61,888 bases of DNA from a virus, in IMG/VR virus record IMGVR_UViG_3300045243_000060, positions 1 to 61,888 of that record, one strand, 5' to 3'. The translations under genes and the position numbers were made by a program. How positions within the stretch are numbered: the stretch's first letter is position 1; each line of letters opens with the position of its first letter. The notes under the pieces were generated by a model. It had not been told where the DNA came from and made no database searches. It worked only from the letters and a program-made list of their open reading frames with translations. This document shows positions 1 through 61,494 of the stretch, piece after piece.

Positions 1-396
1 GCCGCCGAGTGCGCCGTGGAGCGGTGGCAGGACGCGCTCCATACGTTGCTCGTGCCGCAATGGCGCGCGTTCGCTGGCGCTCCGCCGCAACCTTGCCAGC
101 ACGACCGCGAGGGCATGCGCCGGGTCAGCAAGCTCGGCGCCGAGTTGGGCGTCAAGGTTCGGTACCACTGGTGCCACGCGGCGACCGGCGCGGAGGCGGA
201 CGGGTACATGACCCGCAACGACCAACTCGCGCTCAACTGCTCGCACCTCATCGCGTTCCCGGCCGGTCCGGACGAGGTACAGCGGAGCGGCGTTTGGGCG
301 ACCGTCCGGCGCGCAGCGCAGCGCCAGCGGCCCGTCAAGATCGTCCCGCTGGACGGTTCGGACGCGTACATCTACAGCCCGTCAGTGGGGCTGTGA
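1..396 (+). CDS. SLOG-fold (YAcAr/DUF2493-like) nucleotide-binding protein, 5' end missing
   Basis: The frame is open from base 1, so the true start lies outside the window; a GTG at 16 is only an internal possibility. The C-terminal two thirds has a pattern typical of SLOG/DprA-like proteins of the DUF2493 type: an RN..L motif, a hydrophobic strand ending in IAFPAG, then a segment resembling the GT...A phosphate-binding turn, here SGVWATVRRA. Such proteins are thought to bind nucleotides or nucleotide-derived signals, but no reaction can be assigned. The stop overlaps the next start (TGATG). Family assignment is by motif only. Confidence 0.55.
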   Translation, partial: AAECAVERWQDALHTLLVPQWRAFAGAPPQPCQHDREGMRRVSKLGAELGVKVRYHWCHAATGAEADGYMTRNDQLALNCSHLIAFPAGPDEVQRSGVWATVRRAAQRQRPVKIVPLDGSDAYIYSPSVGL

Positions 397-551
397 TGGG
401 GCGCGTGAGCCTGACGACCGTGGACCGGCAGACGTTCTGCATCTACTGCCAGCAGGACTTCAAGCGGCCGTCCGACCTGGCGTGGCACATTCTCAAGAAG
501 CACCCTGGAACGTACGCAGCGCACCACGTCGTCCGGCGCGTAACGCGCTAG
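396..551 (+). CDS. Single C2H2 zinc-finger protein, 51 aa
   Basis: The start ATG overlaps the upstream stop. The protein has a textbook classical C2H2 finger: C15 and C18, a phenylalanine and a leucine at the expected core positions, then H31 and H36, giving CX2CX12HX4H. The tail is basic. Single-finger proteins in phages are generally presumed to bind DNA, RNA or protein; no target is visible. It is the last gene before the intergenic region holding the helicase promoter. Confidence 0.7.
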   Translation: MGRVSLTTVDRQTFCIYCQQDFKRPSDLAWHILKKHPGTYAAHHVVRRVTR

Positions 552-586
552 CGCACCCACCGGCGGAAGGTGCCAAAACCGCCAAG

Positions 587-640
587 CATCCGTCCGCCGG
601 ATGGCCTATAGTTCCTAGTTGATGTTGGCTACTCAATCAA
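587..640 (+). promoter_or_regulatory. Phage promoter candidate upstream of the helicase
   Basis: The ten-mer CATCCGTCCG at 587-596 is followed after exactly 10 nt by TATAGT at 607-612, which looks like a -10 hexamer. The same arrangement recurs at other gene-block starts in the window. Downstream, TTGAT (619-623) and ATCAA (636-640) form an inverted repeat in the presumed leader, just before the ribosome binding site AAGGAG (643-648). Function is inferred from recurrence and position. Confidence 0.55.
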
Positions 641-657
641 CAAAGGAGTCGGATCAG

Positions 658-2670
658 ATGAGCGCAGCGAAGAACAGCACCCACCCCGTCGTCGCAGAGC
701 TTTCCCGCGACGGCGACCGGATCAACGTGACGTTCGATTACAGCCCGCAGCGGGTCAAGCTCGCCAAGCGGGTCAGCGGCTACACGTTCGTGAACAAGGA
801 GAAGGCTCGCGCAGCGGGTCTGACCGACGCGTTCTGGCGCTACCCGCTAGACCTAGTAACCGGCCGTCGACTCCGCGAGGTATTCGGCGACGAGCTAGGG
901 ATCGGCCCCAAGCTCCGCGCGTGGGGCAACAAGGAAGTCACCAAGGAGCAGAAGCTCGCGACCCTCAGTGACGCGGACGACGCCGACCTGAGCAGCGACG
1001 CGCTCCGCAAGCTCGTCAAGGGCACCAAGAACGAGAACGGCGACCCGTTCAAGCTCCGCCCCTATCAGAAGGCGGACATCAGGTTCGCCAGCGAGGGCAA
1101 GGCGGTCATCATCGCCAATCAGCCCCGGACGGGTAAGACCATCACGGCCATCGGCACGGTCATCGAGTCCGGTCTGGAGTACGGCTGGCACCTGGTGTTC
1201 GCGCCGGTCGCTAGCCTCCGGACCGTCTGGGAGGCTGGCATCAAGGACGCGTACCGGATGGCCGGTCTGGAAGAGCCGGTCGTGCTGACGGGCGACACGC
1301 CGAACGAGCGCAAGAAGGCGATCCAGAGGGCAGCCGAGATGGCTGACGCTGGCGAGTCGTTCTACCTCGTTCTGAACCCTTACCACGCGCGGCTCAAGCG
1401 AGTCAGCCACGGCAAGGGCGACCAGATCACGTTCACCCAGGAGCCGGTCAGCCCTGAGCTGATGGAGATCGACTGGGACAGCATGATCATTGACGAGTAC
1501 CACCTCATGGGCCTGTCGAATCCGATCACGCTCGGCGCGAAGGGTGTGAACGAGATCGCGACGACGACACAGCCTGAGCTAAGGCTCGCGCTGTCCGGTA
1601 CGCCCATGGGTGGCAAGCCCATCAAGCTCTGGGGCGCGCTGCACTTCCTCAACCCGGAGGAGTTCACGAGTCGCTGGAATTGGGCCAAGCACTGGCTGGT
1701 CGTCAAGTCGGAGTCGCATCCGGGCGGCAGCCACTCGGTCATCGAGGGCATCATGCCCGGCCGTGAGGTGGACTTCTACGATCACCTGAAGCCCTACCTC
1801 GTTCGACGGACTCAGCGCGAGGCGCTGCCGGGTCTGCCTGAGATGCCGAGGGTCAACGTCTGGTGCGACATGACGCCGCGTCAGTCGGATCAGTACCAGA
1901 CCTTCCTCACCGAGGCGGAGTGGCGGATGGACGACGCCGAGGAAGCCGGTCGCTTGACCGCGACGAACGTACTCGCGGAGTACACCCGCCTCAAGCAGTT
2001 CGCGGACGGGTTCTGCGAAGTCCACAAGACGGGCAAGGTGCTCGAGAACGGTCTGGACCAGCTGCGGGTCAGCCAGACGCCGGACAGCGGCAAGCTCATC
2101 CAGCTGGTCGAGAAGCTCCGCGAGGAGAACGTCATCACCGAGTCCGACGACGACGACGAGCCACGCTGCGCGCTGATCGCCAGCCAGTTCAACGACATGG
2201 TGAAGATGGTCGCCGGTGAACTGACCCGGATGGGCGTTCCGAACGCGATCATCGGGAAGTACGGCGCGAAGGGCGCGGAGCGCGACGCGCTGGTGAAGGC
2301 GTTCCAGGAGCAGACCGAGGGTGCGCCTCGCGTTCTGCTGATGAACACCCTGGCCGGTACCGCGTTGACCCTGGACCGGGCTAGCAGCGTCCACATGCTG
2401 GACGAGACCTGGGTGCCCGACAATCAGGAGCAGATGGAGAACCGGGCGACCGCTACCACGCAGGAAGCGATTGACCGGGGCTGCGGCGTCTACTACTACC
2501 GGACCCGCAACACCGTCGAGTCGGCCATCCAGAAGAAGGTCGCTGGTAAGGCGATGAACAATCACACCATCCTGGACCTGCGACGCGAGATGAAGCGTCA
2601 AGCGGAGCAGGAAGAGCGTCGGCTGGCGGGCGAGCGCGCCGACGACGGCAAGGCGATGCTGGCAGAGTAG
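658..2670 (+). CDS. SNF2/DEAD-type superfamily 2 helicase
   Basis: ATP-dependent DNA helicase or translocase of superfamily 2, about 670 aa. Walker A is NQPRTGKT (from about residue 154), motif II is DEYH (279-282) in place of DEAH, and a motif III-like SGTP follows. The C-terminal RecA domain ends with DETW and a glutamine/arginine-rich motif VI (QEQMENRATA), as in SNF2 proteins. The start ATG at 658 is chosen for the AAGGAG nine bases upstream; in-frame TTG 619 and ATG 622 lie inside the promoter leader and are less likely. A terminator hairpin follows. A role in replication or recombination fits the neighbouring nuclease and Sak4-like ATPase. Confidence 0.88.
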   Translation: MSAAKNSTHPVVAELSRDGDRINVTFDYSPQRVKLAKRVSGYTFVNKEKARAAGLTDAFWRYPLDLVTGRRLREVFGDELGIGPKLRAWGNKEVTKEQKLATLSDADDADLSSDALRKLVKGTKNENGDPFKLRPYQKADIRFASEGKAVIIANQPRTGKTITAIGTVIESGLEYGWHLVFAPVASLRTVWEAGIKDAYRMAGLEEPVVLTGDTPNERKKAIQRAAEMADAGESFYLVLNPYHARLKRVSHGKGDQITFTQEPVSPELMEIDWDSMIIDEYHLMGLSNPITLGAKGVNEIATTTQPELRLALSGTPMGGKPIKLWGALHFLNPEEFTSRWNWAKHWLVVKSESHPGGSHSVIEGIMPGREVDFYDHLKPYLVRRTQREALPGLPEMPRVNVWCDMTPRQSDQYQTFLTEAEWRMDDAEEAGRLTATNVLAEYTRLKQFADGFCEVHKTGKVLENGLDQLRVSQTPDSGKLIQLVEKLREENVITESDDDDEPRCALIASQFNDMVKMVAGELTRMGVPNAIIGKYGAKGAERDALVKAFQEQTEGAPRVLLMNTLAGTALTLDRASSVHMLDETWVPDNQEQMENRATATTQEAIDRGCGVYYYRTRNTVESAIQKKVAGKAMNNHTILDLRREMKRQAEQEERRLAGERADDGKAMLAE

Positions 2671-2719: not shown

Positions 2720-3012
2720 GCGTTCCAGGGTAGCTACCCACGCGACCTTCTCACAGCCCACTAGACGGGCGGAGGTAGCACCTGGTGCCCTCCGAGTCGT
2801 TCACAGCAGCGGAGCTTAAGCGGTTGGGCTCTGAGTAGCCAGCCCTCTGTCCCTCCAGATCGGACGCCGATGCGCGACACGGCGCTCCGACCCGGACAGC
2901 CGGACCTGCGACTGCCCTCCATGCGTCGAGGTTCGGACCGCTCACCTGGTGCCGCCGAGTCGTTCGCTATAGTCCACGACCCCATCGGCTACGATCTCGC
3001 AGGAGGGCGAAG
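2720..3012. promoter_or_regulatory. Gene-free control region upstream of the nuclease gene
   Basis: No convincing gene lies here. It holds a perfect 12-bp palindrome GGGTAGCTACCC (2728-2739), a TCACAGCC motif at 2751, and a direct repeat of CACCTGGTGCC followed by GAGTCGTTC at 2779-2802 and 2943-2965. The second copy runs into a promoter-like TATAGT at 2968-2973. The ribosome binding site AGGAGGG lies just before GTG 3013. Operator function is inference. Confidence 0.5.
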
Positions 3013-4197
3013 GTGACACCGGCTACTCGGACCCGTCGCAAGGGCGCGACGAAGAAGCGGACAGCGACAACGCAGCGCGAGCGCAAGGGCAAGCCCAAGG
3101 CGTCGGCGCAGGTCGCTCAGGTCCGCACCAGCGAGCGCGCGAGTTGGAACGCTTGCCGCCAGCAGTGGGAGTGGGGGTGGGTCAAACACCTCAAGCCTCG
3201 CGAGACCAAGCCCGCGCTCCGGTTCGGCTCGCTGATCCACGAGGCTCTCGAGATGCGGTACCCGCCGGGCATCAAGCGTGGGCCGCTACCGGCGGAGTCG
3301 TTCGAGAAGCTGTACATCGAAGACCTGGCAGAGGCGGAGCAGACCTGGGGCTTCAGGGCGGACGACCAATGGGAGGACGCGCTTGACGTCGGCGTGGACA
3401 TGATGGAGCGGTACATCGACGAGTACGGCAAGGACGAGGACTGGAAGGTGATCGCCAGCGAGATGACATTCCAGGTGCCGGTGTTCGCGGTCGAGGCGGA
3501 GCCAGGGCTATGGGTTCCGGCGCAGCACGACACGGAGGGCGCCAAGCACCTGTTTGACTACGTCGGAACGATGGACGGCGTTTGGGAGAACCGGATGGAC
3601 GGCGGCATCCGGGTGAACGACTACAAGACTTGCAGCGGCGACCCGGTGAAGGAAGCAGCGTCCAAGTTCACGCTGGACGAGCAGACGACCGCCTACTGGA
3701 CCTGGGGTGTGGAGTGGCTTGAGGCGACGCGGATTCTCAGCCGCCAGCAGATGCAGAAGCTTGACGGGATGTTGTTCACGTTCATGCGCAAGGCGAAGTC
3801 GGACCCGCGACCGCAGGACGCGTTCGGCCGCTACCTCAACAAGCCAACGAAAGCTCAGGAGGAAGCGGGCGAACCCGGCGATGTCAGCAAGAGCCAGCCG
3901 CCACCGTACTTCCATCGTGAGGTGATGTACCGTTCCGACGCGGACCGGAGCAAAGCGCGCCAGCGGGCCATCCGCCAGTTCATCGAGATGGACGCCGCCA
4001 AGCGCCATCCGGAGCGGCTGGTGTACAAGCAGCCCGGTACCGGCTTCCCCCGGCAGGTCTGCGTGGGCTGTGAGTTTCGCGACATGTGCGAGCTACACGA
4101 GATTGACGCCGACTGGGAGAGCCAGCGCGACGCGACGATGACGACCTGGGACCCGTACGACGCCCACGAGGTAGAGCAGGAAGGGAAGTCCAAGTGA
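3013..4197 (+). CDS. PD-(D/E)XK exonuclease with Fe-S cysteine set (Cas4/AddB/RecB-like)
   Basis: A 394-aa nuclease of the RecB/Cas4 PD-(D/E)XK family, probably acting on DNA ends in recombination or replication. Catalytic candidates are D188 (in GTMDGV) and D203-Y-K205. One cysteine at C48 and a C-terminal group at C350, C353 and C359 (C-X2-C-X5-C) match the split four-cysteine arrangement that binds a 4Fe-4S cluster in Cas4 and AddB. The first 35 residues are lysine/arginine-rich. It starts at GTG after AGGAGGG. Next to a Sak4-like ATPase and an SSB-like protein, it looks like the nuclease of a phage recombination module. Confidence 0.85.
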   Translation: MTPATRTRRKGATKKRTATTQRERKGKPKASAQVAQVRTSERASWNACRQQWEWGWVKHLKPRETKPALRFGSLIHEALEMRYPPGIKRGPLPAESFEKLYIEDLAEAEQTWGFRADDQWEDALDVGVDMMERYIDEYGKDEDWKVIASEMTFQVPVFAVEAEPGLWVPAQHDTEGAKHLFDYVGTMDGVWENRMDGGIRVNDYKTCSGDPVKEAASKFTLDEQTTAYWTWGVEWLEATRILSRQQMQKLDGMLFTFMRKAKSDPRPQDAFGRYLNKPTKAQEEAGEPGDVSKSQPPPYFHREVMYRSDADRSKARQRAIRQFIEMDAAKRHPERLVYKQPGTGFPRQVCVGCEFRDMCELHEIDADWESQRDATMTTWDPYDAHEVEQEGKSK

Positions 4198-4491: not shown

Positions 4492-5283
4492 GTGGCTAGC
4501 GCAACACCGCCCGCAAGCCTCCGCCCGGTCGGAGGAGAGGGGAAGCTGCGGCTTCTCGTGTTCGGCGTCGCTGGCGCCGGCAAGACGCGGCTAGCAGGCA
4601 CCGGGGCCAACTCGCTCATCATCCACCCGCCGACGGACAGCACGGCGAGCATCCACGAGTCCGACAACGTAGACGAGTTGGTCGTGGAGCACCACGTTGA
4701 TATGGCGGACGCGTTCGCGTACTGCCAGCAGGGTGGCGCCGACGAGTACGACTGGGTATGGCTGGACGGCATCACGCTCTGGGAGGACCACGGTCTGGAC
4801 GACGTGTTCCAGCAGGTCGTGGACCTGAAGCCTCAGCGCGAGGCGCACGGCCCGGACAAGGGCGAGTACGGCGTCAATCGGCGCCGCATCATGAAGTGGA
4901 TCAGGGACATGGTCGGGCTGGCGCAAGCTGGTCACTTCAACCTTGGAGTGACGGCGCTGCCCTGGAACGTCTATGACCCGGTCCGCGAGGACGACATCTG
5001 GATGCCGTCAGTCGGACCGCGCGACGGTAGCCTGAGCCACAAGCTCTGCGGCTACATGAACGTGGTCGCGTATCTCCGCATCGTGGAGCGCGACGACAAG
5101 CCCGCGACCCGCAAGCTGTACACGCAGGCACCGGGCTTCTACGGCAAGGATCAGATCAGTCCGGACGGCGAGTCGCTGAACGGGCTACCGGACCCAACGA
5201 TGACTAGCATCACGGCAGCATTGAACGGCGGCACCCAGACGGGTCGTCGCCGGACCAAACGACCGGCGCGCAAGCGTCGATAG
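4492..5283 (+). CDS. Sak4-like RecA-fold single-strand annealing ATPase
   Basis: 263 aa with Walker A GVAGAGKT at residues 25-32 near the N-terminus and a Walker B-like hydrophobic strand ending in WLDGI. The size, the N-terminal P-loop after a short leader and the position directly before a DUF669-type protein match phage Sak4/AAA_24 proteins, which promote strand annealing with an SSB partner. The C-terminus is very basic. It starts at GTG 4492, one base after the upstream stop. The exact subfamily is inferred from context as much as from motifs. Confidence 0.75.
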   Translation: MASATPPASLRPVGGEGKLRLLVFGVAGAGKTRLAGTGANSLIIHPPTDSTASIHESDNVDELVVEHHVDMADAFAYCQQGGADEYDWVWLDGITLWEDHGLDDVFQQVVDLKPQREAHGPDKGEYGVNRRRIMKWIRDMVGLAQAGHFNLGVTALPWNVYDPVREDDIWMPSVGPRDGSLSHKLCGYMNVVAYLRIVERDDKPATRKLYTQAPGFYGKDQISPDGESLNGLPDPTMTSITAALNGGTQTGRRRTKRPARKRR

Positions 5284-5302: not shown

Positions 5303-6094
5303 GTGACCAAGCTCAGCTATGACATGACCGATGTCGAGGACAGCGGAGGCGACTTCACGCCGCTGCCGGTCGGCGTGTACAACTGCACCATCGACAGCCT
5401 GGAGCTAACCGAGTCGCAGGCTGGCAACGAGATGATCAAGGTGACCTACAAGGTCAAGGACGGCGAGCACGCCGGTCGCCTGATCTGGGACAACGTCGTC
5501 TTGTCCGTGGACTGGAAGTACCTCCAGTTCCTCAAGGCGGTCGGCGTCGTCACCCCGAACGGCAAGAAGCGCAAGGGCGAGTTCACCCTGGAGAGCTTCC
5601 AGGGCGACAAGGTCCAGGTCCGCGTCAAGCACGAGGCGGACAACCGCCCGGAGCAGAAGCAGGCGGACGGTACCTTCCCGCAGCGCCACCGCGTCCAGTC
5701 GGTGAACCCGATGCCCGACGACATCGACGACGATGACGACGAGCCAGACGCGACAGCGGACGACGGCGGCGACGAGGTATGGTCGTGGGCCGATCTGGAG
5801 GACGCGACGCTGGACGAGCTAACGGAGATCAACGAGGACGAGGAGTTGGGCGTCCGGATCACCAGCAAGTCCAAGGTCGAGACCGTCCGTGGCAAGGTCG
5901 CGGAGGCGTTGGGCGTCCTGGAGACGGAGACGGACGACGACGATGACGACGACGACGACGGGTACGACGACATGGACAAGGCGGCTCTGAAGGCAGAGGC
6001 CAAGGAGCGCAGCCTGTCCACGGCCGGTTCGGAGCGGACGCTCATCAGGCGTCTGCGGAAGGACGACGAGGGCGACGGTGGCGAACCTTTCTGA
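5303..6094 (+). CDS. DUF669-type single-stranded DNA binding-like protein with SAP-like tail
   Basis: 263 aa, GTG start. The first 110 residues resemble DUF669 proteins, with the opening PLPVGVYNCTI and the V.YKV.DGEHAGRLIWDN pattern seen in phage SSB-like partners of Sak4. A long aspartate-rich linker follows, including a run of nine aspartates encoded by a GAC/GAT microsatellite. The C-terminal 35 residues resemble a SAP or LEM-like helix-turn-helix DNA-binding motif. A role in coating or delivering single-stranded DNA is inferred. The end overlaps the next gene by 17 bases. Confidence 0.7.
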   Translation: MTKLSYDMTDVEDSGGDFTPLPVGVYNCTIDSLELTESQAGNEMIKVTYKVKDGEHAGRLIWDNVVLSVDWKYLQFLKAVGVVTPNGKKRKGEFTLESFQGDKVQVRVKHEADNRPEQKQADGTFPQRHRVQSVNPMPDDIDDDDDEPDATADDGGDEVWSWADLEDATLDELTEINEDEELGVRITSKSKVETVRGKVAEALGVLETETDDDDDDDDDGYDDMDKAALKAEAKERSLSTAGSERTLIRRLRKDDEGDGGEPF

Positions 6095-6347: not shown

Positions 6348-7307
6348 ATGAATCATCCGGCAGCAACCGATGAGCAACTGGACGCGCTGGCGCCGTATGC
6401 CGGCGTGCCGGGCTCAGCGGAGATGAGGGCTATCGCGGAGCGTACGGGTGGCGAGATTGACCTGTACTGTCCGGTCCATCCGGACACCCGGCGCTCCGCG
6501 CAACTCAACCCCGCCAAGGGCGCGTTCTACTGCCACGCCGAGGGCAAGGGCCACTCGGTCCGCGTCCTCATTGAGCGACGTGACGAGTGGATCCCCGCGA
6601 CCGGCCGGGTGAAGCGGGTCCGGGTCAGCGACTTCAAGCCTCATAACGGCCACGACCCGCGCGCAGCACTCAGCCCGGACGACTGCGCCCGCTGGCATCG
6701 CGGGCTGTTGATGAATGAGGAGGCGCTGGACTGGCTCTGGTCGGAGCGCGGCATTGGCCTTCTCACAGCCAAGCGCGCGGGGCTAGGGCTGGACGGGCGG
6801 ATGCTCAAGATCCCGGTGTACGACCCGGACCGGAGCTTGGCGAACATCCGGACGTACGACCCGTCGCCACGAGCGGACCGGCGGAAGATTTGGAGCGTGA
6901 AGGGCTGCGGGTCGCCGCCACAGCTATACCCGGTCGGGGTATTGACCAGGCTGACGCGACCCGGCGCCAGCATCTTGTTCTGCGAGGGCGAGTGGGACGC
7001 GCTGTTAGCCCTACAGTCAGGTGTCATGGCTGTGACCAGGACGGCAGCCGCTCGGTCGCTCTGGCGCGAGGCGTGGAGTGACCTGTTCGTCGGGCGCCAT
7101 GTCTACGTCTGCCACGACGCGGACACACCGGGGCAGATGGGCAACGAGATCGTCGCCGAGTCGTTGCGAAGCTCAGCGGCCAGCGTCCACTACTGCCGGT
7201 TGCCCTACCCGGTACAGCCCAAGCACGGTAAGGACGTCAGCGACTTGATAATGGATCACGGGCCGATGGCCCTAGCTAGCGTCATGATTGACGCGGAGAG
7301 GATGTAA
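6348..7307 (+). CDS. DNA primase with zinc-binding and toprim domains
   Basis: 319 aa. The N-terminal zinc-binding module has C41, H44, C62 and a nearby histidine, as in DnaG-like primases. The C-terminal half has the toprim motifs: FCEGEWDAL around residue 210 carries the acidic E, and CHDADTPGQ around 257 carries the DxD. It is shorter than cellular DnaG and lacks an obvious helicase domain. It presumably synthesises primers for the phage DnaE-type polymerase, with the helicase supplied elsewhere. Confidence 0.8.
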   Translation: MNHPAATDEQLDALAPYAGVPGSAEMRAIAERTGGEIDLYCPVHPDTRRSAQLNPAKGAFYCHAEGKGHSVRVLIERRDEWIPATGRVKRVRVSDFKPHNGHDPRAALSPDDCARWHRGLLMNEEALDWLWSERGIGLLTAKRAGLGLDGRMLKIPVYDPDRSLANIRTYDPSPRADRRKIWSVKGCGSPPQLYPVGVLTRLTRPGASILFCEGEWDALLALQSGVMAVTRTAAARSLWREAWSDLFVGRHVYVCHDADTPGQMGNEIVAESLRSSAASVHYCRLPYPVQPKHGKDVSDLIMDHGPMALASVMIDAERM

Positions 7308-10433: not shown

Positions 10434-13400
10434 ATGCCTAAGAACGATGAGCCTGCGGGCGACCGGCGCGACGACATCCAGCGAGGGGAGGGCACCTACA
10501 AGACTAAGGTCGGCGCGTTCGAGAGGCGCCAGCGGGATCACGTCGCGTACCAACCCATCAGCGTCCGCGCTCGGCACCGGCAGGCAGCGTCCGCGAGGGC
10601 GCACCGCAACCTCAAGCCTATGCGGTTCGTCAGCCTGCACCACCACAGCACCTACTCGTTCTTGGACGGGTTCCAGCTACCGGAGGCGCACATCAGACGG
10701 GCCGCCGAGATCAACATGCCGGCGCTGGCGATGACCGAGCATGGCAACACGTTCAGTCACGTGAAGCTAGAGCAGGCGGCCGTCGCCGCCGGGGTCAAGC
10801 CCATCTTTGGCTGTGAGTTCTACGTCGGATGGACCGATGAGAAGCGACGAGCGCAGCGGAAGAATCACCTCACCGTCCTCGCGAAGAACGCGGAGGGCTA
10901 CCGCAACCTGTTGGAGCTAGTCAGCCGGTCGTGGCGCGAGGGCTTCTACTATGAGCCCACCGTCGATTGGCGTTGGCTGGTCGAGAGCCAGCGGGGATTG
11001 GTCGTGCTGTCCGGGTGTCAGGGTGGCGCGTTGTTCACAGCCATGGTAGGAGGGAAGCATGTCGCAGAGGAAGACGCTAGCTATCGGCGCGGGCTGTCTG
11101 TTGCTCGTTGGATGGCGGAACGGTTTGAGGATTTCTACATCGAGGTCCAGGCGTTCCCTGAACTCGAGAAGACGCGACTGGCCAATCCAATGTTGGCTAG
11201 GGTCGCACGGGCTGTGCATCGACCTTTGGTTGCGACGATGGATTGTCACTATACGGCTATTGAGGAAGCTGAGGTACAGCAGATCCTCCACAACGTCCGA
11301 CCCGGCGAGCAACGGACACTTGAGGACCAGGTCCGTGATTGGGGCTATGAGGTCCCGCTCTGCCACCCACCCACAGACAATACGGTTTACAGACGACTGG
11401 TAGCGACGGGGCTGACCAAGGCGGAGGCGACTGAGGCCATCGTGTCCACCGAGTCGATAGCGCAAGGGTGTACCGTCGAGTTGCCTCAGCTGCCCCACGT
11501 TGAGTTCCCGCTGCCGGACGGGTACGACTCGGCGATTGATCTATGGCGCGACTGGCTCCGCGAGGGCTGGCGCTACAGGGGCTGTGACCAACTTGCCAGC
11601 GACGAGCGCGAGCGGTACAAGGCGCAACTCGCCAAGGAGATGGAGGTCATCGAGGCGAAGGGCTACGTGGGATACTTCCTCATCGTCGCCGACGCCATCG
11701 TGTTCGCGAAGGGCGAGGGCATCCCGGTCGGACCGGCGCGCGGCAGCGCAGCGGCATCCATCTGCTGTTGGCTACTCCGGATCACGGAGGTCAACCCCAT
11801 GCTGTTCGACAACCTCGTGTTTGAGCGGTTCATCGACTGGAACCGCGAGGACATGCCGGACATCGACATCGACTTTGCGTCGTTCGGACGGGCGCGGGTC
11901 CGCGAGTACCTGCGGGGCAAGTACCCGGACGTCAACAACATCGGTACGTTCACCATGTACAAGTCCAAGCTCGCGCTGGACGACGTGGCCCGCGTCCACG
12001 GCATACCCAAGCGCGCCGTCGATACCGTGAAGGAGCTACTGGTGGAGCGGTCGTCGGGCGACTTGCGCGCCAGCGCGACCATCGAGGACACGGTGGACCA
12101 GTTCGACGCGGCGTATGAGGTCTTTGAGGAGCACCCGTCGCTGTCAGCGGCGATGGACCTGGAGGGCAACGCGAAGGGCTTTGGGGTCCACGCCGCCGGA
12201 CTCGTCATCAGCAACGGCCCCATCACGGAGGTAGCGAGCGTTCTCGAGCGGACCGTCAACGGTGAGGTGTACACCGTCGTGTCGATGGACAAGTACGACG
12301 CGGAGCGGCAGGGCTTGGAGAAGCTGGACTTCCTCGGACTGAGTACCATGGACATGATCCACGCCGCGCTCGGACAGATCGGCATGACCCTGGAGGACTT
12401 GTATGCGATACCGCTGGACGACGAGGCTACCATTGATGGGTTTCGCCGCAACGACGTTGTCGGCATTTTCCAGTTCGACGGCCGGGCCACGCGGATTGTC
12501 TGTGGTGCTCTCAAGCCGGATAACTTCCACGAGATCGTCTGCGTCAACGCACTATCGCGTCCAGGCCCACTTCACAACGGAGCGGTTCAGGGCTACGTCG
12601 CCGGCAAGTGGCACGCGGACCAGGCGCTTGATCTCAATGATCCGATCCATCCGGCGTTCTCTAAGGTCACCGCCGATACGCAGCACCAGATCATCTTCCA
12701 GGAACAGATCCTCCGGCTTGTACGCGAGGTCGGCGACTTCAGCTGGACCCACGCCGCCTACATCCGGAAGATCATCTCCAAGAAGCTCGGCGACGCCGAG
12801 TTCAACCGCCAGAAGGAGACGTTCCTAACCGGCGCCACCAAGGTCCACGAGCGCGACCCGGACGTGCCGCCTATGGACCGGGCTACAGCGGAGCGCATCT
12901 GGGGCATGTGCATTACCGCCGGTTCCTACGCGTTCAACGCAGCCCACGCGACGGCATACAGCACCATCGCCGTCTGGCAGATGTGGATCAAGCAGCACCA
13001 CCCCCAGGCGTTCTTCGCTGCGGCGCTGGCGGAGATGCCGGCCGGTCGGAGCGGCGCCGGGTCCGGAGGTATCGCCGGGGTGACGACGAGTCGCCAGCAG
13101 GACCTGCTCCGCGACGCCGTGAAGGGCAACGGCCCGCGACCCGGAGTTGAGGTGCTGCCGCCGGACGTGACGTCGGACGCCAAGTGGCGCGGCGAGTCGG
13201 TCACAGCCATCAGGGCAGGGTGGACGCAGATACCCGGCATCGCGTTGAAGACGGCGGAGAAGATCATCGCGCTGCGCGACGATGACGGATTGATGACCTA
13301 CAGCGACCTGGCGTCCGTCCACGGCATCGGCCCCAAGACCGTTGACAAGGTCGCGGAGTTTTGCGAGCGTGAGGACCCGTTCGGCATCTACGCGTTGGAG

Positions 13401-44086: not shown

Positions 44087-44487
44087 CAGACCGATGGAAT
44101 CTGCTTGAGGCTTCCTTCCAACAGTTCTATGGCATCAACCTCGCAGACGAGTGGGGCAAGCTCGGCGTCCGACGCATCTGGGCGCTGGTCCAAGGGCTGC
44201 CCGCTGAGGCACCGTTGTGGCGCGAGGAGTACGACGATGCTCAGTCGTGGACGAACGCGAACGAGTTGGCAGCGATCCAATGCGAGCTTACGGATGCGTG
44301 GAGCCGACTCATCTTCACCGCGCTCGGAGGTAAGCCCAAGGGCAAGCCTCTCACGATCCAACGACCGGAACACTTCACAGCCAAGGCGGCTGCGGAGTCG
44401 GAACAACGTACCCGGAACAAAGTGACATCGCTGTCTGACATGTCGGCGCTGGCATCGTTCTTTGGACGGACGGGTGAGGTGCTCTAG
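43706..44487 (+). CDS. Tail assembly chaperone, frameshifted long form (GT)
   Basis: At the five-G run 44056-44060 the upstream frame reads ACG-GGG-GAA. A -1 slip gives ACG-GGG-GGA-ATC-TGG and continues through LLADRWNLLEASFQQFYGINLADEW to TAG 44485-44487. The second part (T) has no good start of its own. The fused product is about 260 aa. The -1 frameshift between G and T before the tape measure gene is nearly universal in long-tailed phages, so this assignment is strong. Confidence 0.83.
44056..44062 (+). promoter_or_regulatory. -1 ribosomal frameshift slippery site GGGGGAA
   Basis: The run of five G followed by AA sits in codons GGG (44057-44059) and GAA (44060-44062). Slipping back one base leaves the glycine tRNA on GGG and brings GGA into the A site. 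It lies 24 bases before the zero-frame stop. Confidence 0.78.
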
Positions 44488-53557: not shown

Positions 53558-54690
53558 CGGAACGCGAGCGGCTGTTCTCCTCCCCGGACGCGGTGTCGGA
53601 GCGGTTCGTGGACGCCGTGAATAACGTCCACCGGGTCGCGAGCTACTTTGAGGTGATGGACGGCGACGACGTACTGGCGACCATCGAGGCCATCGACGGC
53701 AGCGTTACGTACGACGCGCAGGCGGAGGTTCGGTCGTCGCTAGACTTGCAGGTGGCTGTGACCAACGATGACATCATCCCGGTCGATGCCGACTCGCTGC
53801 TTGTGCCTTATGGCAACGACATCCGGGCCTGGAGCGGCATCCGGTTCGACGACTTGGACGAGTTGATCCCGATGGGACGATACCGCATCCAGACGGCATC
53901 GGTCAGCGATACCGGCAGCGACCTGACACTCCAGGTATCGGGCCAGGATCGTTCGTGTCGAATCATCGAGGCAGCGTTTGAGCAGGACATGACCTGGCTG
54001 GCCGGGTCGCAGACGGCTCTCGAGATCGTACGTGGCATCATCTCCGGCATCTACCCAGACGCGGACATGGACACCTTCTTCACCATCGACGACTTCGCTA
54101 CGCCATCCATCCAGGCGTCCGCTGGCGACGACCCTTGGGCCTTTGTCCAGGGCATCGCTACGTCCGTTGGGGCGGAGGCGTACTTCAACGATGACGGCGT
54201 GCCGGTCATGACGCCGACGCCGACAGCGACCGGCGACCCGGACCGGCACTTCAACGAGGGTGAGGTCTTGACGGCGGCTGGCAAGGAGTGGACCCGCGAG
54301 GGAATCGCAAACAAGGTGTTGGTGACCGGCGATAGCGGCTCGCTGACGACGCCGATCACCGGGACGGCGCTGGACAACAACCCCAACTCGCCCACTTACT
54401 ACTACGGCAAGTTTGGCAAGGTGCCGTTCTTCTACTCGTCTCAGTTCATCACGACCGACATCCAGGCGGGCGACGCAACGAGCGGGATCCTCCAGACGAA
54501 GATCGGACTGGACCAACAGATCGACTTTGGCTCGCTGATCGACCCGCGAGCGCGGGCGCTTGACATCATCGGCATCAGCCGCGAGCGTATCGGCGTCGAT
54601 GAGACGCACGTACTAGACGCCGTATCCATCCCCCTAATGGGCGACGGTACGATGACCGGGCAGACGCGCAAGACCCAGGTGTTCTCATGA
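53548..54690 (+). CDS. Tail hub/baseplate protein (DUF5047-like)
   Basis: 380 aa from GTG 53548. Opening ...FEVMDGDDVLATIEAIDGSVTYDAQAEVRSSLDLQV and VPYGNDIRAWSGIRF are typical of DUF5047-like proteins, related to the gp27/gpD hub that caps the tail. LIDPRARALDIIGISRERIGV near the end supports it. Confidence 0.75.
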   Translation: MDVAERERLFSSPDAVSERFVDAVNNVHRVASYFEVMDGDDVLATIEAIDGSVTYDAQAEVRSSLDLQVAVTNDDIIPVDADSLLVPYGNDIRAWSGIRFDDLDELIPMGRYRIQTASVSDTGSDLTLQVSGQDRSCRIIEAAFEQDMTWLAGSQTALEIVRGIISGIYPDADMDTFFTIDDFATPSIQASAGDDPWAFVQGIATSVGAEAYFNDDGVPVMTPTPTATGDPDRHFNEGEVLTAAGKEWTREGIANKVLVTGDSGSLTTPITGTALDNNPNSPTYYYGKFGKVPFFYSSQFITTDIQAGDATSGILQTKIGLDQQIDFGSLIDPRARALDIIGISRERIGVDETHVLDAVSIPLMGDGTMTGQTRKTQVFS

Positions 54691-57131
54691 CAGCGGGTAC
54701 GGCAGCGATGGAGAACGTCGGGCGCCGACTCGCTGCGCTTGAGCAGCAGGTCACCAAGCTCAAGTTGACTTCTCGCGCTGGTGGCGGCGACCCGCATAGC
54801 AAGAACACCGATCCCCGGCGGAGGAACTTCGTCGTGGACTTTGGCGGCGAGGGCATCATCGGCGCCGATAACCTGGGCGCCTGGAACAAAGCCATCGATA
54901 GCTACAACGCTGGCGAGTACGACGAGCTTTGGTGTCCGGCCGGACGGTACGTCCAGAGCGGCATACCAAAAGCTTGGCTGGCGACGGGTGACCCTCCGAT
55001 CCAAGGCGTACAGCAACAGGCATTGCGCGGTTGGATTCACGGCGCGGGCCAGGCGACGGAGCTTGTCATGTCGGGCGGCGCCGGTACGTTCTTCACGGTG
55101 GGGTCTGGTAAGGAAACGTTCTTGGACTTCGCGCTCACCCAAAAGGACCCGCCGTTCCGGGGCATGTCATACTTCTCCATCAGCGACTTCAAGCTCACCT
55201 GTACCGATGAGAACAGCGTCGAGGGCGAAGTGTCGGCGATAGTAACTGGTACCAATCGGGTCTACCTGAGCAGCGTCGCGGGCTTGCACGTCGGAGACCC
55301 CATCAAGTTCTACGGACCCGGCTTCGCCGTCGATAACACGGGCGCGATCTCGTCGCCGACCGGGATCGCATCGGAATACTTCGACAGCACTCAGCACAAC
55401 GCGACGACGTACTACATCGCGGGGATCTTGCCCGCGAGCGATCCGACCGACCCCAACTCGATCACGCTCAGCACAGCCCCGCCCCCCGGCGGAGCGACGG
55501 TCACGATCTCGCGGTCGATCATCACCGGCGCCGGCAATGGCGCTGCGGTCGGATCGTTCGTCCGGCTGAACACAGCCACCACGCCGTCGGGCGGGCAGAA
55601 CCCCATCGTGTTGAACAAGGGCGGCCACCTGACCGTCGAGAACATCACCTGCAACAAGACGAGCGGCATCGTCTCGGTCGGCACCGGCGACCTGAACGAC
55701 GTCAACGAACCGTACGGCGTCAACCCCAGTCGCGCGATGGACAATCCAATAGCGACAGCGGCCCGGACGATCACGGCCGTGGACACCGGGTTGGAGAAGC
55801 TGACCACCGGCGCCGCGCATGGCCTGGCTGTGAACGACCCGGTGGTCTTCACCGATGACCACCCGCTGCCGGGGAACATCGTAGACGGGCTGGACGGCGG
55901 CTATGCGCCGTACTTGGTCGAGACGGTACCAAGTCCGACGACCTTCACCCTCAAGAACCGCCAGGACAACGTCGGCGCGGCTCGCGGAGCGCAGCACAAC
56001 ATCAGTACTGCTGTGACCGGAGGTACGTTCTACACCGGCAGCTATGACGCGCGGGTCCAGAGGTACTGGGTCAGCAACGTCATCGGCTCGCTGAACGGCG
56101 GCACTCCGACGGCGAACCGGATTGACATCGAGAATGGTACGTCCGGACACTATGACAACGTCCAGTGCGCGACGAGCGACCTTGGCGGAGGGCGAGTCAT
56201 CTACTGTCACCCGCCAGGCAGCCCTGGAGCTTCCAACAACGACCAACATTGGTTCACCGACGTGTTCGTTCAGGGCGGCGAGTCGTTCTGGATTGACATC
56301 GACGTAACGTACGGCGACTGCTTCAACTGGAACCTGAAGGGCTGCGTCATGGACGGCGCGACGAACGGCACCGTGTACGCTCACGCTAGCAGCGGCGGCA
56401 CCGGCAACACGATCACCGACCTATGGCTTGACCATTGCCACTGTAGCTCGCGGGCTGGCGTGACGCTCCACTTTGACAAGAGCGATACGACCGGCATCTG
56501 GCGCAACATCGAGATCAACGGAGGGCGCTACAAGTTCCAGGACAACTTGGGGTTGTACATGCACGGCGCCGGACTCAGCGGCGTCCAGACGTTCCTTGCG
56601 CATGACGTCGCCTTCCTCCAGGATCAGATCACGATCATCGACAGCATCGCCAACTCCAACGAGCTAGTTTCGACAGCGGGCAACGACGGTACGGGCCACG
56701 ACCTACAGGTTGGCGATCTCATTCGGTTCTCTACGGTGAGCCATACCTTTGGGGCGAACGTAACCGCCGGTCCGACGTATTGCGTGAAGGAGGTCACCAG
56801 CAAGACGCGCTTCACCGTGACGACCAATCAGACGGGCGGAGGCGTCGGCCCACGAGCGGACATCACCGCCAACGGCGGCGCCGGGGTGCTGCGGGGTAAG
56901 CTGGACGCGGCAGCGATCCTCAACGGCGCCGCGAATGATGTCCGGATTCACGACTGCGAGTTCAACGGGTTCAACTCAGCGTACATGGAGTGCGGCAACG
57001 CGATCCAAGCTACGTCGCTGGCGAGCTACAACGTCCATGACAACAACGCGACCGGGCTTAGGACGGCGACGTTCGCGACCGGACTCACGGACACCGCCGC
57101 GCATCCGTTCCACCACAACAGTCTCAACTAG
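54687..57131 (+). CDS. Tailspike with right-handed beta-helix (pectate-lyase-like)
   Basis: 814 aa. An N-terminal short coiled coil (ENVGRRLAALEQQVTKLKL) suits trimerisation. The RNFVVDFGGEGIIGADNLGAWNKAIDSYNAG segment is the classical entry to pectate-lyase-like helices. A long region of short strands (VRVRDCEFNG-like; DVRIHDCEFNGFNSAYMECGNA) makes the helix. It probably binds or depolymerises a surface polysaccharide; catalytic residues cannot be picked out. Confidence 0.75.
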   Translation: MTAGTAAMENVGRRLAALEQQVTKLKLTSRAGGGDPHSKNTDPRRRNFVVDFGGEGIIGADNLGAWNKAIDSYNAGEYDELWCPAGRYVQSGIPKAWLATGDPPIQGVQQQALRGWIHGAGQATELVMSGGAGTFFTVGSGKETFLDFALTQKDPPFRGMSYFSISDFKLTCTDENSVEGEVSAIVTGTNRVYLSSVAGLHVGDPIKFYGPGFAVDNTGAISSPTGIASEYFDSTQHNATTYYIAGILPASDPTDPNSITLSTAPPPGGATVTISRSIITGAGNGAAVGSFVRLNTATTPSGGQNPIVLNKGGHLTVENITCNKTSGIVSVGTGDLNDVNEPYGVNPSRAMDNPIATAARTITAVDTGLEKLTTGAAHGLAVNDPVVFTDDHPLPGNIVDGLDGGYAPYLVETVPSPTTFTLKNRQDNVGAARGAQHNISTAVTGGTFYTGSYDARVQRYWVSNVIGSLNGGTPTANRIDIENGTSGHYDNVQCATSDLGGGRVIYCHPPGSPGASNNDQHWFTDVFVQGGESFWIDIDVTYGDCFNWNLKGCVMDGATNGTVYAHASSGGTGNTITDLWLDHCHCSSRAGVTLHFDKSDTTGIWRNIEINGGRYKFQDNLGLYMHGAGLSGVQTFLAHDVAFLQDQITIIDSIANSNELVSTAGNDGTGHDLQVGDLIRFSTVSHTFGANVTAGPTYCVKEVTSKTRFTVTTNQTGGGVGPRADITANGGAGVLRGKLDAAAILNGAANDVRIHDCEFNGFNSAYMECGNAIQATSLASYNVHDNNATGLRTATFATGLTDTAAHPFHHNSLN

Positions 57132-57830: not shown

Positions 57831-58303
57831 GCGAGTCCCGCAATCATTACCTACACGATCTCAACGACGCGCTCGGCGTACCGCTGTCGCGCCGCAAGAC
57901 TGTCGCTCGCGCGGAGATGGCCTGGTGGCAAAGCGAGGGCGGAGCGACTAGCTCGGAGGACTTGCACGGCGCGATCCCTCCGGGCCATGAGACGGACTGG
58001 AACGCGTTCAACACGACAAAGGTCTGGGGCGCTTCTCACAGCCAACCCGGCAACTCGGTCCCGGTCCAGGTCTACGCGAACCGGGCGGACGGCATCGCCG
58101 CGACGGTGTCCACGCTGCGCGAACCGCGCTACGCCGATCTGATGAAGGCGATCATGACACCGGGCGTCCACGCCAAGACGATCTGTAAGCGCATCGTCGA
58201 GTCCGACTGGGGGACGGTCGAGCATCCGATGTACGACGTGCTGGACGACATCGTCAAGCGCGGGCTGTACGACAGCTACAACCTCCGGGTCTACCCGTCA
58301 TGA
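57827..58303 (+). CDS. Lysozyme-like phage lysin component
   Basis: 158 aa. WWQSEGGATSS with an acidic residue, FNTTKVWGASHSQPGNSVPVQVYANRADGIAATVSTL and the Y.D.....TPG helix resemble the lysozyme-like domain found in actinophage tail lysins and endolysins, in which the first glutamate is catalytic. The ATGA overlap with the next gene makes it part of the lysis operon. Confidence 0.65.
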   Translation: MSESRNHYLHDLNDALGVPLSRRKTVARAEMAWWQSEGGATSSEDLHGAIPPGHETDWNAFNTTKVWGASHSQPGNSVPVQVYANRADGIAATVSTLREPRYADLMKAIMTPGVHAKTICKRIVESDWGTVEHPMYDVLDDIVKRGLYDSYNLRVYPS

Positions 58304-59176: not shown

Positions 59177-59686
59177 GTGAGGATGACCCGCCCAGTTCTC
59201 GCTGCACTCGCGTTGTTCGCGGGCGCGGCGTTCATAGTGCCAAGCAGCGCGACCGCCGTTCCGATCCATCAGCACATCACCATCAATACGCCGGTCGGAC
59301 CGGACATCACGGTGACACGCGTCGTCAACGTCGCTCCAAAGGACAGCGACGACGACGGGTGCGCGGACTCGGATGACGACTACAACGGACCCGGTTGCCA
59401 TCCGCCGCCACCGCCACCGCTACCGGCGGCATTGCCGACGACGGCACCGGCGTCGAGTACCGAGTCAACAGCGACCGGCGGCTACACGATCCCCGACTAC
59501 ATCGTTCAATGCGAGTCGGGCGGCGACTACAACGCGCAGAACGCGTCCGGCGCGTATGGCGCGTACCAGATCATGCCGGACACCGCCAGCAACTATGGCT
59601 GTGACCTGTCGTCGCCAGCCGGACAGGACGCATGCGCTGCCGACATCTACGCCGACGTGGGCACGTCCGCGTGGGACTGCGGATGA
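59177..59686 (+). CDS. Secreted lysozyme-fold (Rpf/transglycosylase-like) protein
   Basis: 169 aa; GTG 59177 or ATG 59183. Signal peptide (MRMTRPVLAALALFAGAAFIVPSSATA), a calcium-binding-like acidic stretch (DSDDDGCADSDDDYNGPGC), a Pro/Thr hinge, and a compact C-terminal domain YIVQCESGGDYNAQNASGAYGAYQIMPDTASNYGC. The E of CESGG is the expected catalytic acid, as in resuscitation-promoting factors and transglycosylases. It is exported and acts on peptidoglycan. Confidence 0.75.
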   Translation: MRMTRPVLAALALFAGAAFIVPSSATAVPIHQHITINTPVGPDITVTRVVNVAPKDSDDDGCADSDDDYNGPGCHPPPPPPLPAALPTTAPASSTESTATGGYTIPDYIVQCESGGDYNAQNASGAYGAYQIMPDTASNYGCDLSSPAGQDACAADIYADVGTSAWDCG

Positions 59687-60200: not shown

Positions 60201-60251
60201 CGTTCCGCCGCTGGATGCCCTATAGTTCTTGGTGTTGAGCACTACTATCAA
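60201..60251 (+). promoter_or_regulatory. Promoter candidate of the CATCCGTCCG family
   Basis: CGTTCCGCCG (60201-60210), 10 nt, then TATAGT (60221-60226), followed by TTGA (60235-60238) and TCAA (60248-60251) as a leader inverted repeat, then AAGGAG. Nearly the same as the helicase promoter at 587. Confidence 0.55.
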
Positions 60252-60263
60252 GAAGGAGTCGGA

Positions 60264-60929
60264 ATGAGCCTCTCACCCACCACCAACGACCGCCCCGCCA
60301 GCGACAAGCAGGTCAGCTACATCCGCGACCTGTTTGACAAGGCGGACCTGTTCGCGGACTCGGAGTTCTTTGACCGGGTCAACGCGATGGACGCGACCGA
60401 GTACGCCGCCTACATCGAGCACCTCAAGGATCAGGTCGGCGACCCGGACGACATCAGCAAGCCCCGCATCGGACGCGCTCGCGCCAGCCAGATCATCGAG
60501 CGGCTCAAGGCGCTGCCGCGTAAGCGCGAGGCGCAGTCGTTCCGGAAGGGCAACCGCGACGAGGACATCGTCAACTGGCGAGTCGGCATGTACGTCCACG
60601 AGGGTCCGGACGGACTCGGTGACGTGTTCCGCGTCTACCTCGGACAGCAGAGCGGCAAGAACCTCGTCAAGCAGCTAGTCGATACCGGCCAGCCGCACCC
60701 GGAGGACGACCGCATCACCCTCCACGACTGGCAGTACGTCGGCGCGGCAGCGGGCTACAAGGGTCAGCGGGCGCTACGTGGCGCGAGGCTGATGACGCTG
60801 GCGGAGGCGAAGGAGTACGGGCGCATGACCGGCTCATGCTGCCGCTGCGGGCGGAGGCTGGACGTTCCGGAGTCCGTCGAGGCGGGTATCGGCCCGGTCT
60901 GCGCCGGCAAGGTCGAGGAGTGGGCATGA
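60264..60929 (+). CDS. DUF6011-containing protein
   Basis: 221 aa. The C-terminus has the DUF6011 zinc motif CCRCGRRLDVPESVEAGIGPVCAGK. The N-terminal part is DKQVSYIRDLFDKADL, a helical motif seen in phage early proteins. A promoter of the family used upstream of the helicase precedes it, so early expression is likely. Biochemical role unknown. Confidence 0.75.
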   Translation: MSLSPTTNDRPASDKQVSYIRDLFDKADLFADSEFFDRVNAMDATEYAAYIEHLKDQVGDPDDISKPRIGRARASQIIERLKALPRKREAQSFRKGNRDEDIVNWRVGMYVHEGPDGLGDVFRVYLGQQSGKNLVKQLVDTGQPHPEDDRITLHDWQYVGAAAGYKGQRALRGARLMTLAEAKEYGRMTGSCCRCGRRLDVPESVEAGIGPVCAGKVEEWA

Positions 60930-61093
60930 ACACCTACCGGCGACGTACCTTCAACCGGATGGTCTGCCAGCTTCGCGCCGGCACGCGACCAAGCAAGATC
61001 GTCGGCGACCGCGACATCCTCCAGTACGCGATGGAGTACGTGGAGGGCGAGCGGTACGCGGCGGAGCGGCGCAAGGCGAAGGAGGCATCATGA
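60926..61093 (+). CDS. Small basic helical protein, 55 aa
   Basis: ATGA overlaps both neighbours. Arginine/lysine-rich; unknown. Confidence 0.6.
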   Translation: MNTYRRRTFNRMVCQLRAGTRPSKIVGDRDILQYAMEYVEGERYAAERRKAKEAS

Positions 61094-61494
61094 CGCTGAC
61101 GCCGGAACAACGAGCGGCCATCTACCACGACAACATCAAGAAGGCGGACTGCGGCGTGATCGCGCTCCAGTCCGTCACCGGGCTGACGTACGCGGAGGCG
61201 GACGAGCTTCTCACAGCCCATGGCTACAAGGGCGGAGCGGCGGCGATGGAAGGCACGCCGCGAGGCACCATTGAGAAGTCGCTGCGCTCCATCGGCTACG
61301 GCGTCCAGACGGTCGCTGTCGAGGAAGGGTCCACGCCGAGCATCTTCTGGATGGAGCGGCATCCGGGCCGGTTCCTACTCTACACGCCGGGTCACGTCAG
61401 CACCATTGTGGACGGACGACCTTACAACGCAGGTATCGGCGGTAGCCCTCTCGAGAGCGTCGTCAAAATAACCCCACCCAAGGAGGACGACTAG
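61090..61494 (+). CDS. Papain-like (C39-type) cysteine peptidase fold protein
   Basis: 134 aa. KADCGVIALQSVTGLTYAEADELL puts C21 at the start of a helix, and GHVSTIVDGRPYN gives H102 and a nearby N/D, the order expected of C39-like or papain-fold enzymes. Similar proteins are found in many phage genomes without known substrate. Cleavage of a host protein or peptide is possible. Confidence 0.6.
   Translation: MTLTPEQRAAIYHDNIKKADCGVIALQSVTGLTYAEADELLTAHGYKGGAAAMEGTPRGTIEKSLRSIGYGVQTVAVEEGSTPSIFWMERHPGRFLLYTPGHVSTIVDGRPYNAGIGGSPLESVVKITPPKEDD

What the first reader, a model, noticed from the sequence alone, without database searches (positions are those of the whole stretch)
389..61218. The 8-mer GGCTGTGA recurs about 35 times on both strands
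Reading by eye I found about 20 GGCTGTGA (389, 4066, 7028, 10809, 11580, 15171, 21699, 22156, 24890, 25823, 27614, 30883, 32504, 36604, 41317, 42633, 44640, 48981, 53754, 55826, 59597) and about 14 TCACAGCC (2751, 6763, 11035, 13201, 14987, 25185, 30283, 38115, 40531, 44375, 51516, 53219, 58036, 61211). At this GC content a given 8-mer of this composition should occur only one or two times per strand. Inside genes it often uses codons otherwise uncommon here (CTC-ACA-GCC, GCT-GTG). It is spread through all regions, with a gap at 15.2-21.7 kb. It could be a Chi-like or anti-nuclease site, a stoperator-like regulator site, a packaging or segregation motif, or a methylation target.
Basis: partly seen in the sequence, partly recalled or inferred. 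Interest (0 to 1): 0.78.

Follow-up and report, generated by a model that had tools for sequence, protein, structure and literature searches.

The report
Clade-specific phage genome-wide octamer
This soil bacteriophage carries 35 copies of one 8-letter DNA word, GGCTGTGA, spread over both strands and mostly inside genes; the word is selected as DNA and not as protein, and related phages carry drifted versions of it, so a protein of the phage's own DNA-copying and recombination machinery probably reads it as a signpost.

Summary
GGCTGTGA occurs 21 times on + and 14 on -, and ranks first among 8-mers by order-2 Markov expectation (35 vs 2.4). Synonymous-codon shuffles give 6.3-6.6 (maximum 12 in 1000). 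Inside genes it is 30 vs about 2.0-2.6, in excess in all six frames, so selection acts on the DNA. Flanks carry more signal (T at -1; A/T at +10, 30/35). Near-variants are not enriched, positions turn over between relatives, and in several phages spacing is more even than random. Relatives sharing only the replication/recombination module (SNF2 helicase, AddB/Cas4-type Fe-S nuclease, Sak4, RuvC-like resolvase, DnaE) carry GGCTGTG; relatives sharing only structural genes do not. Along the DnaE tree the word drifts: GGCTGTGA/C, GGCTGCGT, perhaps GGGCAGTG and CGGGCTGA; distant cousins have CTGGCGGA, TGGCGGG, GGCGGGGT. CTGGCGGA occurs in related phages of three host genera but not in other M. smegmatis phages. 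Best reading: a Chi-like site read by a phage-encoded recombination or replication protein. The reader protein and the mechanism are inferred; the host is unknown.

The parts
389..396 (+). GGCTGTGA site (overlaps a stop codon TGA)
2751..2758 (-). GGCTGTGA site, intergenic
4066..4073 (+). GGCTGTGA site in nuclease gene (encodes part of the Fe-S cysteine motif, GCEF)
6763..6770 (-). GGCTGTGA site
7028..7035 (+). GGCTGTGA site
10809..10816 (+). GGCTGTGA site in dnaE
11035..11042 (-). GGCTGTGA site in dnaE
11580..11587 (+). GGCTGTGA site in dnaE
13201..13208 (-). GGCTGTGA site in dnaE
14987..14994 (-). GGCTGTGA site
15171..15178 (+). GGCTGTGA site
21699..21706 (+). GGCTGTGA site, intergenic
22156..22163 (+). 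GGCTGTGA site, intergenic
24890..24897 (+). GGCTGTGA site
25185..25192 (-). GGCTGTGA site, intergenic
25823..25830 (+). GGCTGTGA site
27614..27621 (+). GGCTGTGA site in terminase gene
30283..30290 (-). GGCTGTGA site
30882..30889 (+). GGCTGTGA site (reader gave 30883)
32504..32511 (+). GGCTGTGA site
36604..36611 (+). GGCTGTGA site
38115..38122 (-). GGCTGTGA site
40531..40538 (-). GGCTGTGA site (core conserved in relative G001)
41317..41324 (+). GGCTGTGA site (core conserved in relative G001)
42633..42640 (+). GGCTGTGA site
44375..44382 (-). GGCTGTGA site
44640..44647 (+). GGCTGTGA site (core conserved in relative G001)
48981..48988 (+). GGCTGTGA site
51516..51523 (-). GGCTGTGA site
53219..53226 (-). 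GGCTGTGA site
53754..53761 (+). GGCTGTGA site
55826..55833 (+). GGCTGTGA site
58036..58043 (-). GGCTGTGA site
59597..59604 (+). GGCTGTGA site
61211..61218 (-). GGCTGTGA site
658..2670 (+).
   Evidence: Pfam PF00176; shared with motif-bearing relatives
3013..4197 (+). PD-(D/E)XK nuclease of AddB/Cas4 type with C48, C350, C353, C359 (C-x2-C-x5-C) Fe-S pattern (candidate reader)
   Evidence: PF12705, phrog_1218 exonuclease, cysteines
4558..5283 (+). Sak4-like recombinase (RecA family)
   Evidence: phrog_124
5303..6094 (+). DUF669/SAP protein, accessory of the module
6348..7307 (+). DNA primase (candidate reader in the rival reading)
   Evidence: phrog_47
10434..13859 (+). DnaE-like DNA polymerase III alpha, used for the tree
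   Evidence: phrog_405
17755..18774 (+). RecA/DnaB-like ATPase with C-terminal winged helix
   Evidence: AAA_25, HTH_24
18826..19383 (+). RuvC-like resolvase (homologue of ShakeNBake gp36)

Best explanation
GGCTGTGA (weakly extended to T-GGCTGTGA-N2-W-R) is a real DNA-level signal kept at about one site per 1.8 kb on both strands. Shown: it is selected as DNA in every reading frame; it turns over in position while its density is kept; near-variants are not enriched; it is tied to the phage's replication/recombination module and not to its capsid/tail genes; and its sequence changes along the phage DnaE tree. Inferred: a phage-encoded protein of that module reads it. Most likely it works like Chi for the phage's own end-processing machinery: the AddB/Cas4-type Fe-S nuclease with the SNF2 helicase resects DNA ends until it meets the asymmetric, G-rich site, then stops degrading or switches and leaves a 3' end on which Sak4 starts strand exchange for recombination-dependent replication; RuvC-like resolvase and DnaE finish. 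Sites on both strands at fairly even spacing would protect either end of a broken or packaged molecule.
For: Codon shuffle and six-frame excess. Stringent core with extended flank. Turnover of positions. G010 and G013 share the replication module and carry GGCTGTG (30 vs 9.8; 38 vs 13.1); G042 and G046 share the structural module and do not (25 vs 19.6; 8 vs 6.1). G056 (DnaE 66%) has GGCTGTG 28 vs 7.3, and G051 (58%) has GGCTGCG 44 vs 12.3. Motif identity follows supported clades of the DnaE tree. CTGGCGGA is enriched in Butterscotch/G014 (Mycobacterium), G011, whose 67,383-base length matches Corynebacterium phage C3PO, and Gordonia phages Suzy and Gibbin, but is below expectation in TM4 (2 vs 11.9), D29 (3 vs 7.0) and Che8 (4 vs 7.0). 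No enrichment in four actinobacterial plasmids used as host stand-ins. Spacing is more even than random in several bearers. All the words are G-rich and asymmetric, except ShakeNBake's palindrome. The nuclease has the Fe-S cysteine pattern; Cas4-like nucleases are homologous to the RecB/AddB nuclease domains (PMC5704561).
Against: No site-protein interaction has been shown. Some phages with the same module show no clear motif (G049, Hager, Wollypog, G057, G059, G060), so the module alone does not predict one. The footprint reaches past 8 bp (A/T at +10), which suits a duplex-binding protein as well as a Chi-type reader. No phage-encoded Chi system is known to me. The host is unknown, so host reading is excluded only by analogy.
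Confidence: 0.42

Rival explanations
1. A phage-encoded DNA-binding protein (repressor, stoperator-type elongation blocker or nucleoid-like protein) binds the sites and silences or organises the genome.
For: Asymmetric about 12-bp footprint with a W at +10 shared by GGCTGTG phages; numbers (about 30) and drift of the motif with phage kinship resemble cluster A stoperators (PMC6550527); many small genes at 16-25 kb have no Pfam match.
Against: Stoperators mostly point one way relative to transcription (PMC6550527); here orientation is 21:14 (P 0.31) and 30 of 35 sites are intragenic. No integrase or repressor found among the proteins scanned. D29's own stoperators, counted as a control, do not appear in the all-frame screen.
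Confidence: 0.2
2. Primase or other replication-initiation sites: the phage primase starts lagging-strand primers at the motif, so sites are needed on both strands at kilobase spacing.
For: A primase gene lies in the shared module; spacing of 1.2-1.8 kb and even distribution suit Okazaki-sized steps.
Against: Known primase sites are 3-5 nt (own knowledge); a strict 8-mer with a +10 preference is far longer. The bearers with CTGGCGGA and GGCGGGGT showed no clear homologue of this primase (their primases may be of another type).
Confidence: 0.1
3. A Chi site of the host's own RecBCD/AdnAB/AddAB, kept by the phage for protection, as in E. coli phages.
For: Over-represented Chi in phages is established for E. 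coli (PMC3784561); the word is a G-rich octamer; the GGCTGTG phages could share a host.
Against: The parallel word CTGGCGGA is found in related phages of Mycobacterium, Corynebacterium and Gordonia but not in other M. smegmatis phages, and neither word is enriched on actinobacterial plasmids. The word changes among relatives of 51-66% DnaE identity. The below-expectation counts of CTGGCGGA in other phages could still be Chi avoidance as in PMC3784561, so this is not excluded.
Confidence: 0.13
4. By-product of codon context and of strong avoidance of restriction-like words, without a function of its own.
For: This genome avoids many 6-mers (CCGCGG 0 vs 113, GAGCTC 0 vs 59, CCGAAG 0 vs 49), which distorts neighbouring words such as CGCTGGCG; GCT-GTG context is mildly favoured in other phages too.
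Against: About 12-fold excess in genes in all six frames; single-base neighbours are at or below expectation except at the last base; the flank preference at +10/+11 is seen on both strands and in different frames.
Confidence: 0.04

Closest known systems
Chi sites (E. coli GCTGGTGG and equivalents) as over-represented in phages (PMC3784561)
   Same: Short asymmetric G-rich octamer, over-represented in the phage, both strands, inside genes, strict core; phage carries recombination functions.
   Different: The word follows phage kinship and the phage's own replication/recombination module rather than a host; it drifts between related phages; no host enrichment seen by proxy; the footprint extends to about 12 bp.
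Stoperators of cluster A mycobacteriophages (GGTGGMTGTCAAG; PMC6550527, PMC9283540)
   Same: About 30 asymmetric sites spread over a phage genome, motif specificity drifting with phage kinship; the 7-mer TGGCTGT is in both.
   Different: Mostly inside genes, both orientations, no repressor or integrase recognised; the match ends after TGGCTGT.
Repeated intergenic motifs of actinophages (cluster K SAS/ESAS, Microbacterium clusters EC, EF, EG, EI; PMC7302621)
   Same: Short asymmetric or inverted words repeated in one actinophage cluster.
   Different: Those are 5-12 copies in small intergenic gaps upstream of genes; these are 35 copies, mostly intragenic, on both strands.
DNA uptake sequences (Neisseria, Pasteurellaceae; own knowledge)
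   Same: Genome-wide strict core with weaker flanks, both strands, at tolerated codons.
   Different: Those are a property of naturally competent bacteria; this is in a phage clade.

Membership tests
Chi site | short asymmetric over-represented word on both strands | tested here: met
Chi site | recognised by a RecBCD/AddAB-type helicase-nuclease that then changes activity | not testable with these tools
   phage encodes an AddB/Cas4-type Fe-S nuclease and a helicase, no assay
Chi site | enriched in the host chromosome | tested here: inconclusive
   host unknown; actinobacterial plasmids show no excess
Chi site | same word in unrelated phages of one host | tested here: not met
   tested on the parallel motif CTGGCGGA: absent in TM4, D29, Che8, Papyrus, Patience, Predator; not testable for GGCTGTGA itself because the host is unknown
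Stoperator (cluster A) | 13-bp GGTGGMTGTCAAG-type site | tested here: not met
   only TGGCTGT is shared; D29 control has 15 true stoperators
Stoperator (cluster A) | mostly one orientation relative to transcription, short intergenic positions | tested here: not met
   21:14 and 30/35 intragenic
Stoperator (cluster A) | cognate immunity repressor encoded in the phage | tested here: inconclusive
   none among the proteins scanned, but many small genes have no match
Primase recognition site | RNA priming at the word | not testable with these tools
   primase gene present
Restriction/methylation site | cognate methyltransferase or restriction enzyme in the phage; avoidance of the word | tested here: not met
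   word is enriched; no methyltransferase among the proteins scanned

The most novel reading that the evidence does not exclude
A large group of actinobacterial phages with a DnaE/SNF2/Cas4-like/Sak4/RuvC-like replication module runs a phage-encoded Chi-like system: each lineage has its own strict, evenly spaced octamer, and the word and its reader protein co-evolve, from GGCTGTGA here through GGCTGCGT and possibly GGGCAGTG to CTGGCGGA, TGGCGGG and GGCGGGGT in cousins.
Probability: 0.35. Interest if true: 0.88.

Novelty: new variant of a known kind. Interest (0 to 1): 0.7.

Why it matters
If a phage protein reads these words, it would be the first Chi-like recognition system I know of that belongs to a virus and evolves with it. 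It would let specificity be compared across many natural variants of one reader, and in well-studied relatives (cluster D mycobacteriophages with CTGGCGGA in M. smegmatis) it can be tested at once. It would also explain a large, until now unremarked constraint on codon use across these genomes.

Tried and rejected
Nucleotide search against known phages found nothing. Search of genome contigs for a prophage or host gave only two Paenibacillus DnaE hits at 32%, so the host stays unknown, and without an actinobacterial centre genome the phylum-wide count of the word could not be run. Attempts to fetch L5, PG1 and Cjw1 failed. Gapped and degenerate word search mostly returned compositional words (TM4, GTE5 and Samy score as high), so only exact 7- and 8-mers were used. 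Max-order Markov z-scores at k=8 were useless because the 7-mers are dominated by the motif itself. Strand pattern around an origin: no consistent switch seen in the window. The 15.2-21.7 kb gap: chance. Copies as part of longer repeats: rejected, flanks differ. Motif calls for G052, G054, G055 and G058 are tentative (scores 5-9, near the level of some controls); G053's best single 7-mer is GCTTGGC, with GGCTGCGT second among 8-mers; G001's excess of GGCTGTG is only in two frames. In the matched-word spacing control several genomes had too few control words to use.

Full report
1. Observation. GGCTGTGA occurs 21 times on the + strand and 14 times on the - strand. All listed coordinates hold, with 30883 corrected to 30882. 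An order-2 Markov model expects 2.4, and no other 8-mer deviates as much. Permuting synonymous codons over the genome gives 6.3 +/- 1.4 (max 11 in 400), keeping flanking dinucleotides 6.5 +/- 1.6, and permuting within genes 6.6 +/- 1.45 (max 12 in 1000). Five of the real sites are intergenic and stay fixed in these shuffles. Inside genes the count is 30 against 2.0-2.6.

2. It is a DNA signal. Split by frame, observed/expected is 5/0.7, 1/0.1, 13/0.4 on the sense strand and 1/0.2, 8/0.4, 2/0.2 on the antisense strand: excess in every frame, with the largest numbers where the word spells Ala-Val or Thr-Ala. Several genes accept a rare cysteine (Gly-Cys-Glu/Asp) or, at 389, a stop codon. Single-base variants of the word are at or below expectation except for weak excess of T and G at the last base. 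Flanks differ between copies, so this is no long repeat, but T is preferred at -1 (22/35), A/T at +10 (30/35, P 1e-9) and purine at +11 (30/35). A/T at +10 is also seen in GGCTGTG relatives G001 and G013 and more weakly in G056 and G010.

3. What the genome is. It is a tailed actinophage: TerL, portal, capsid and tape-measure relatives are in Mycobacterium, Gordonia, Streptomyces and Arthrobacter phages, and the left part carries SNF2 helicase, PD-(D/E)XK nuclease, Sak4, DUF669, primase, DnaE, ThyX, a DnaB-like ATPase and a RuvC-like resolvase. The nuclease has the C48...C350-x2-C353-x5-C359 pattern, typical of AddB/Cas4 Fe-S nucleases (own knowledge; homology stated in PMC5704561). No integrase, repressor or methyltransferase was recognised in the proteins scanned, but many small genes have no match.

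4. Relatives separate the module that matters. G010 and G013 (DnaE 66-67% identical) share with the window its replication/recombination module, and beyond it only a weak tape-measure match; G042 and G046 share only structural genes. GGCTGTG is in excess in the first pair (30 vs 9.8, 38 vs 13.1) and not in the second (25 vs 19.6, 8 vs 6.1). The words in G010 and G013 are spread over the whole contigs. Aligned positions are mostly not conserved (4 of 9, 1 of 6, 1 of 6): the density is kept while the places turn over.

5. The word drifts with the phage tree. Ten further relatives and a DnaE tree (most forks well supported) give: window GGCTGTGA; G013, G056, G010 GGCTGTG(C); their sister pair G051, G053 GGCTGCGT; then, more weakly, G052 and G054 GGGCAGT, and G058 CGGGCTGA. 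In the other half of the tree: CTGGCGGA (G014, G011, Suzy, Gibbin), TGGCGGG (Patience; Patience itself is not in the tree), GGCGGGGT (G012); and, nearer to the window's half, the palindrome TGCCGGCA (ShakeNBake). The strongest cases, by excess in the five weaker frames, are the window (13.5), G012 (15.9) and ShakeNBake (27, counted twice as a palindrome); control phages and plasmids reach 3-9, apart from the Tsukamurella plasmid, which has a strong word of its own, CGACGGTG. Some phages with the module show no clear word (G049, Hager, Wollypog, G057, G059, G060).

6. Host or phage? The host of the window phage is unknown. The parallel word CTGGCGGA answers by analogy: it is shared by related phages of Mycobacterium, Corynebacterium and Gordonia (G011 is taken to be Corynebacterium phage C3PO from its identical length of 67,383 bases) and is below expectation in TM4 (2 vs 11.9), D29 (3 vs 7.0), Che8 (4 vs 7.0), Papyrus, Patience and Predator, mostly phages of M. 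smegmatis. Neither word is enriched on Tsukamurella, Rhodococcus, Streptomyces and Euzebya plasmids. A host Chi kept by some phages and avoided by others, as described for E. coli (PMC3784561), remains possible.

7. Spacing. Gaps between sites are more even than random in the window (GGCTGTG P 0.016), G013 (0.012), G056 (0.032), G014 (0.015) and G012 (<0.001), borderline in G011 and Gibbin, and not in G051 or ShakeNBake. Words of similar count in the same genome are usually less even. This suits a function that needs a site within reach everywhere.

8. Mechanism. Shown: DNA-level selection, strict core with extended flank, turnover, link to the replication/recombination module, drift with phage kinship. 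Inferred: a phage-encoded reader in that module; a Chi-like effect on resection by the AddB/Cas4-type nuclease and helicase, feeding Sak4 recombination. Rivals are a stoperator-like or nucleoid-like DNA-binding protein, primase sites, a host Chi, and a codon-context by-product, weighted in the rival list. Membership as Chi or as stoperator is not claimed: for each, at least one tested feature was not met.

9. Limits. Gene calls come from a simple own gene finder, so frame counts may shift slightly. The relatives are metagenomic fragments. The motif calls in the more distant relatives are post hoc. No protein-DNA evidence exists.

Noticed in passing
window, whole: Very strong avoidance of many 6-mers against codon shuffles: CCGCGG 0 vs 113, GTCGAC 6 vs 95, CGATCG 2 vs 86, CCCGGG 2 vs 71, GAGCTC 0 vs 59, CCGAAG 0 vs 49, AGCGCT 0 vs 42, GGGCCC 0 vs 41, ACCGGT 0 vs 34; looks like broad restriction-site avoidance, including non-palindromic words.
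   Followed up: partly
window, whole: Second over-represented word CGCTGNCG (154 vs 46 in genes), mostly on the sense strand, with CGCCGGCG completely absent (0 vs 19): perhaps a by-product of the avoidance above.
   Followed up: partly
L107 (Streptomyces phage ShakeNBake, 1-50000): Palindrome TGCCGGCA 27 times, in genes about 20-fold over codon shuffle and in all frames.
   Followed up: partly
G012 (L069-L072): GGCGGGGT 34 times in a 49% G+C phage, in excess in all frames, GGCGGGG very evenly spaced (CV 0.55).
   Followed up: partly
L172-L176 (Tsukamurella tyrosinosolvens plasmid): CGACGGTG 114 vs 30 in 100 kb of a Mycobacteriales megaplasmid, in excess in all frames: a possible host-side Chi or other genome-wide word.
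   Followed up: no
window 18826-19383: No Pfam match, but homologous to ShakeNBake's annotated RuvC-like resolvase and conserved across DnaE phages.
   Followed up: partly
window 1-25 kb versus 25-62 kb: Clear mosaic: left module related to G010/G013, right (structural) module to G001/G042/G046, with little overlap.
   Followed up: yes
L166 (Mycobacterium phage D29): Known stoperators are found (GGTGGMTGTCAAG, 11 + 4) but do not rise to the top in an all-frame 8-mer screen, a useful control.
   Followed up: yes
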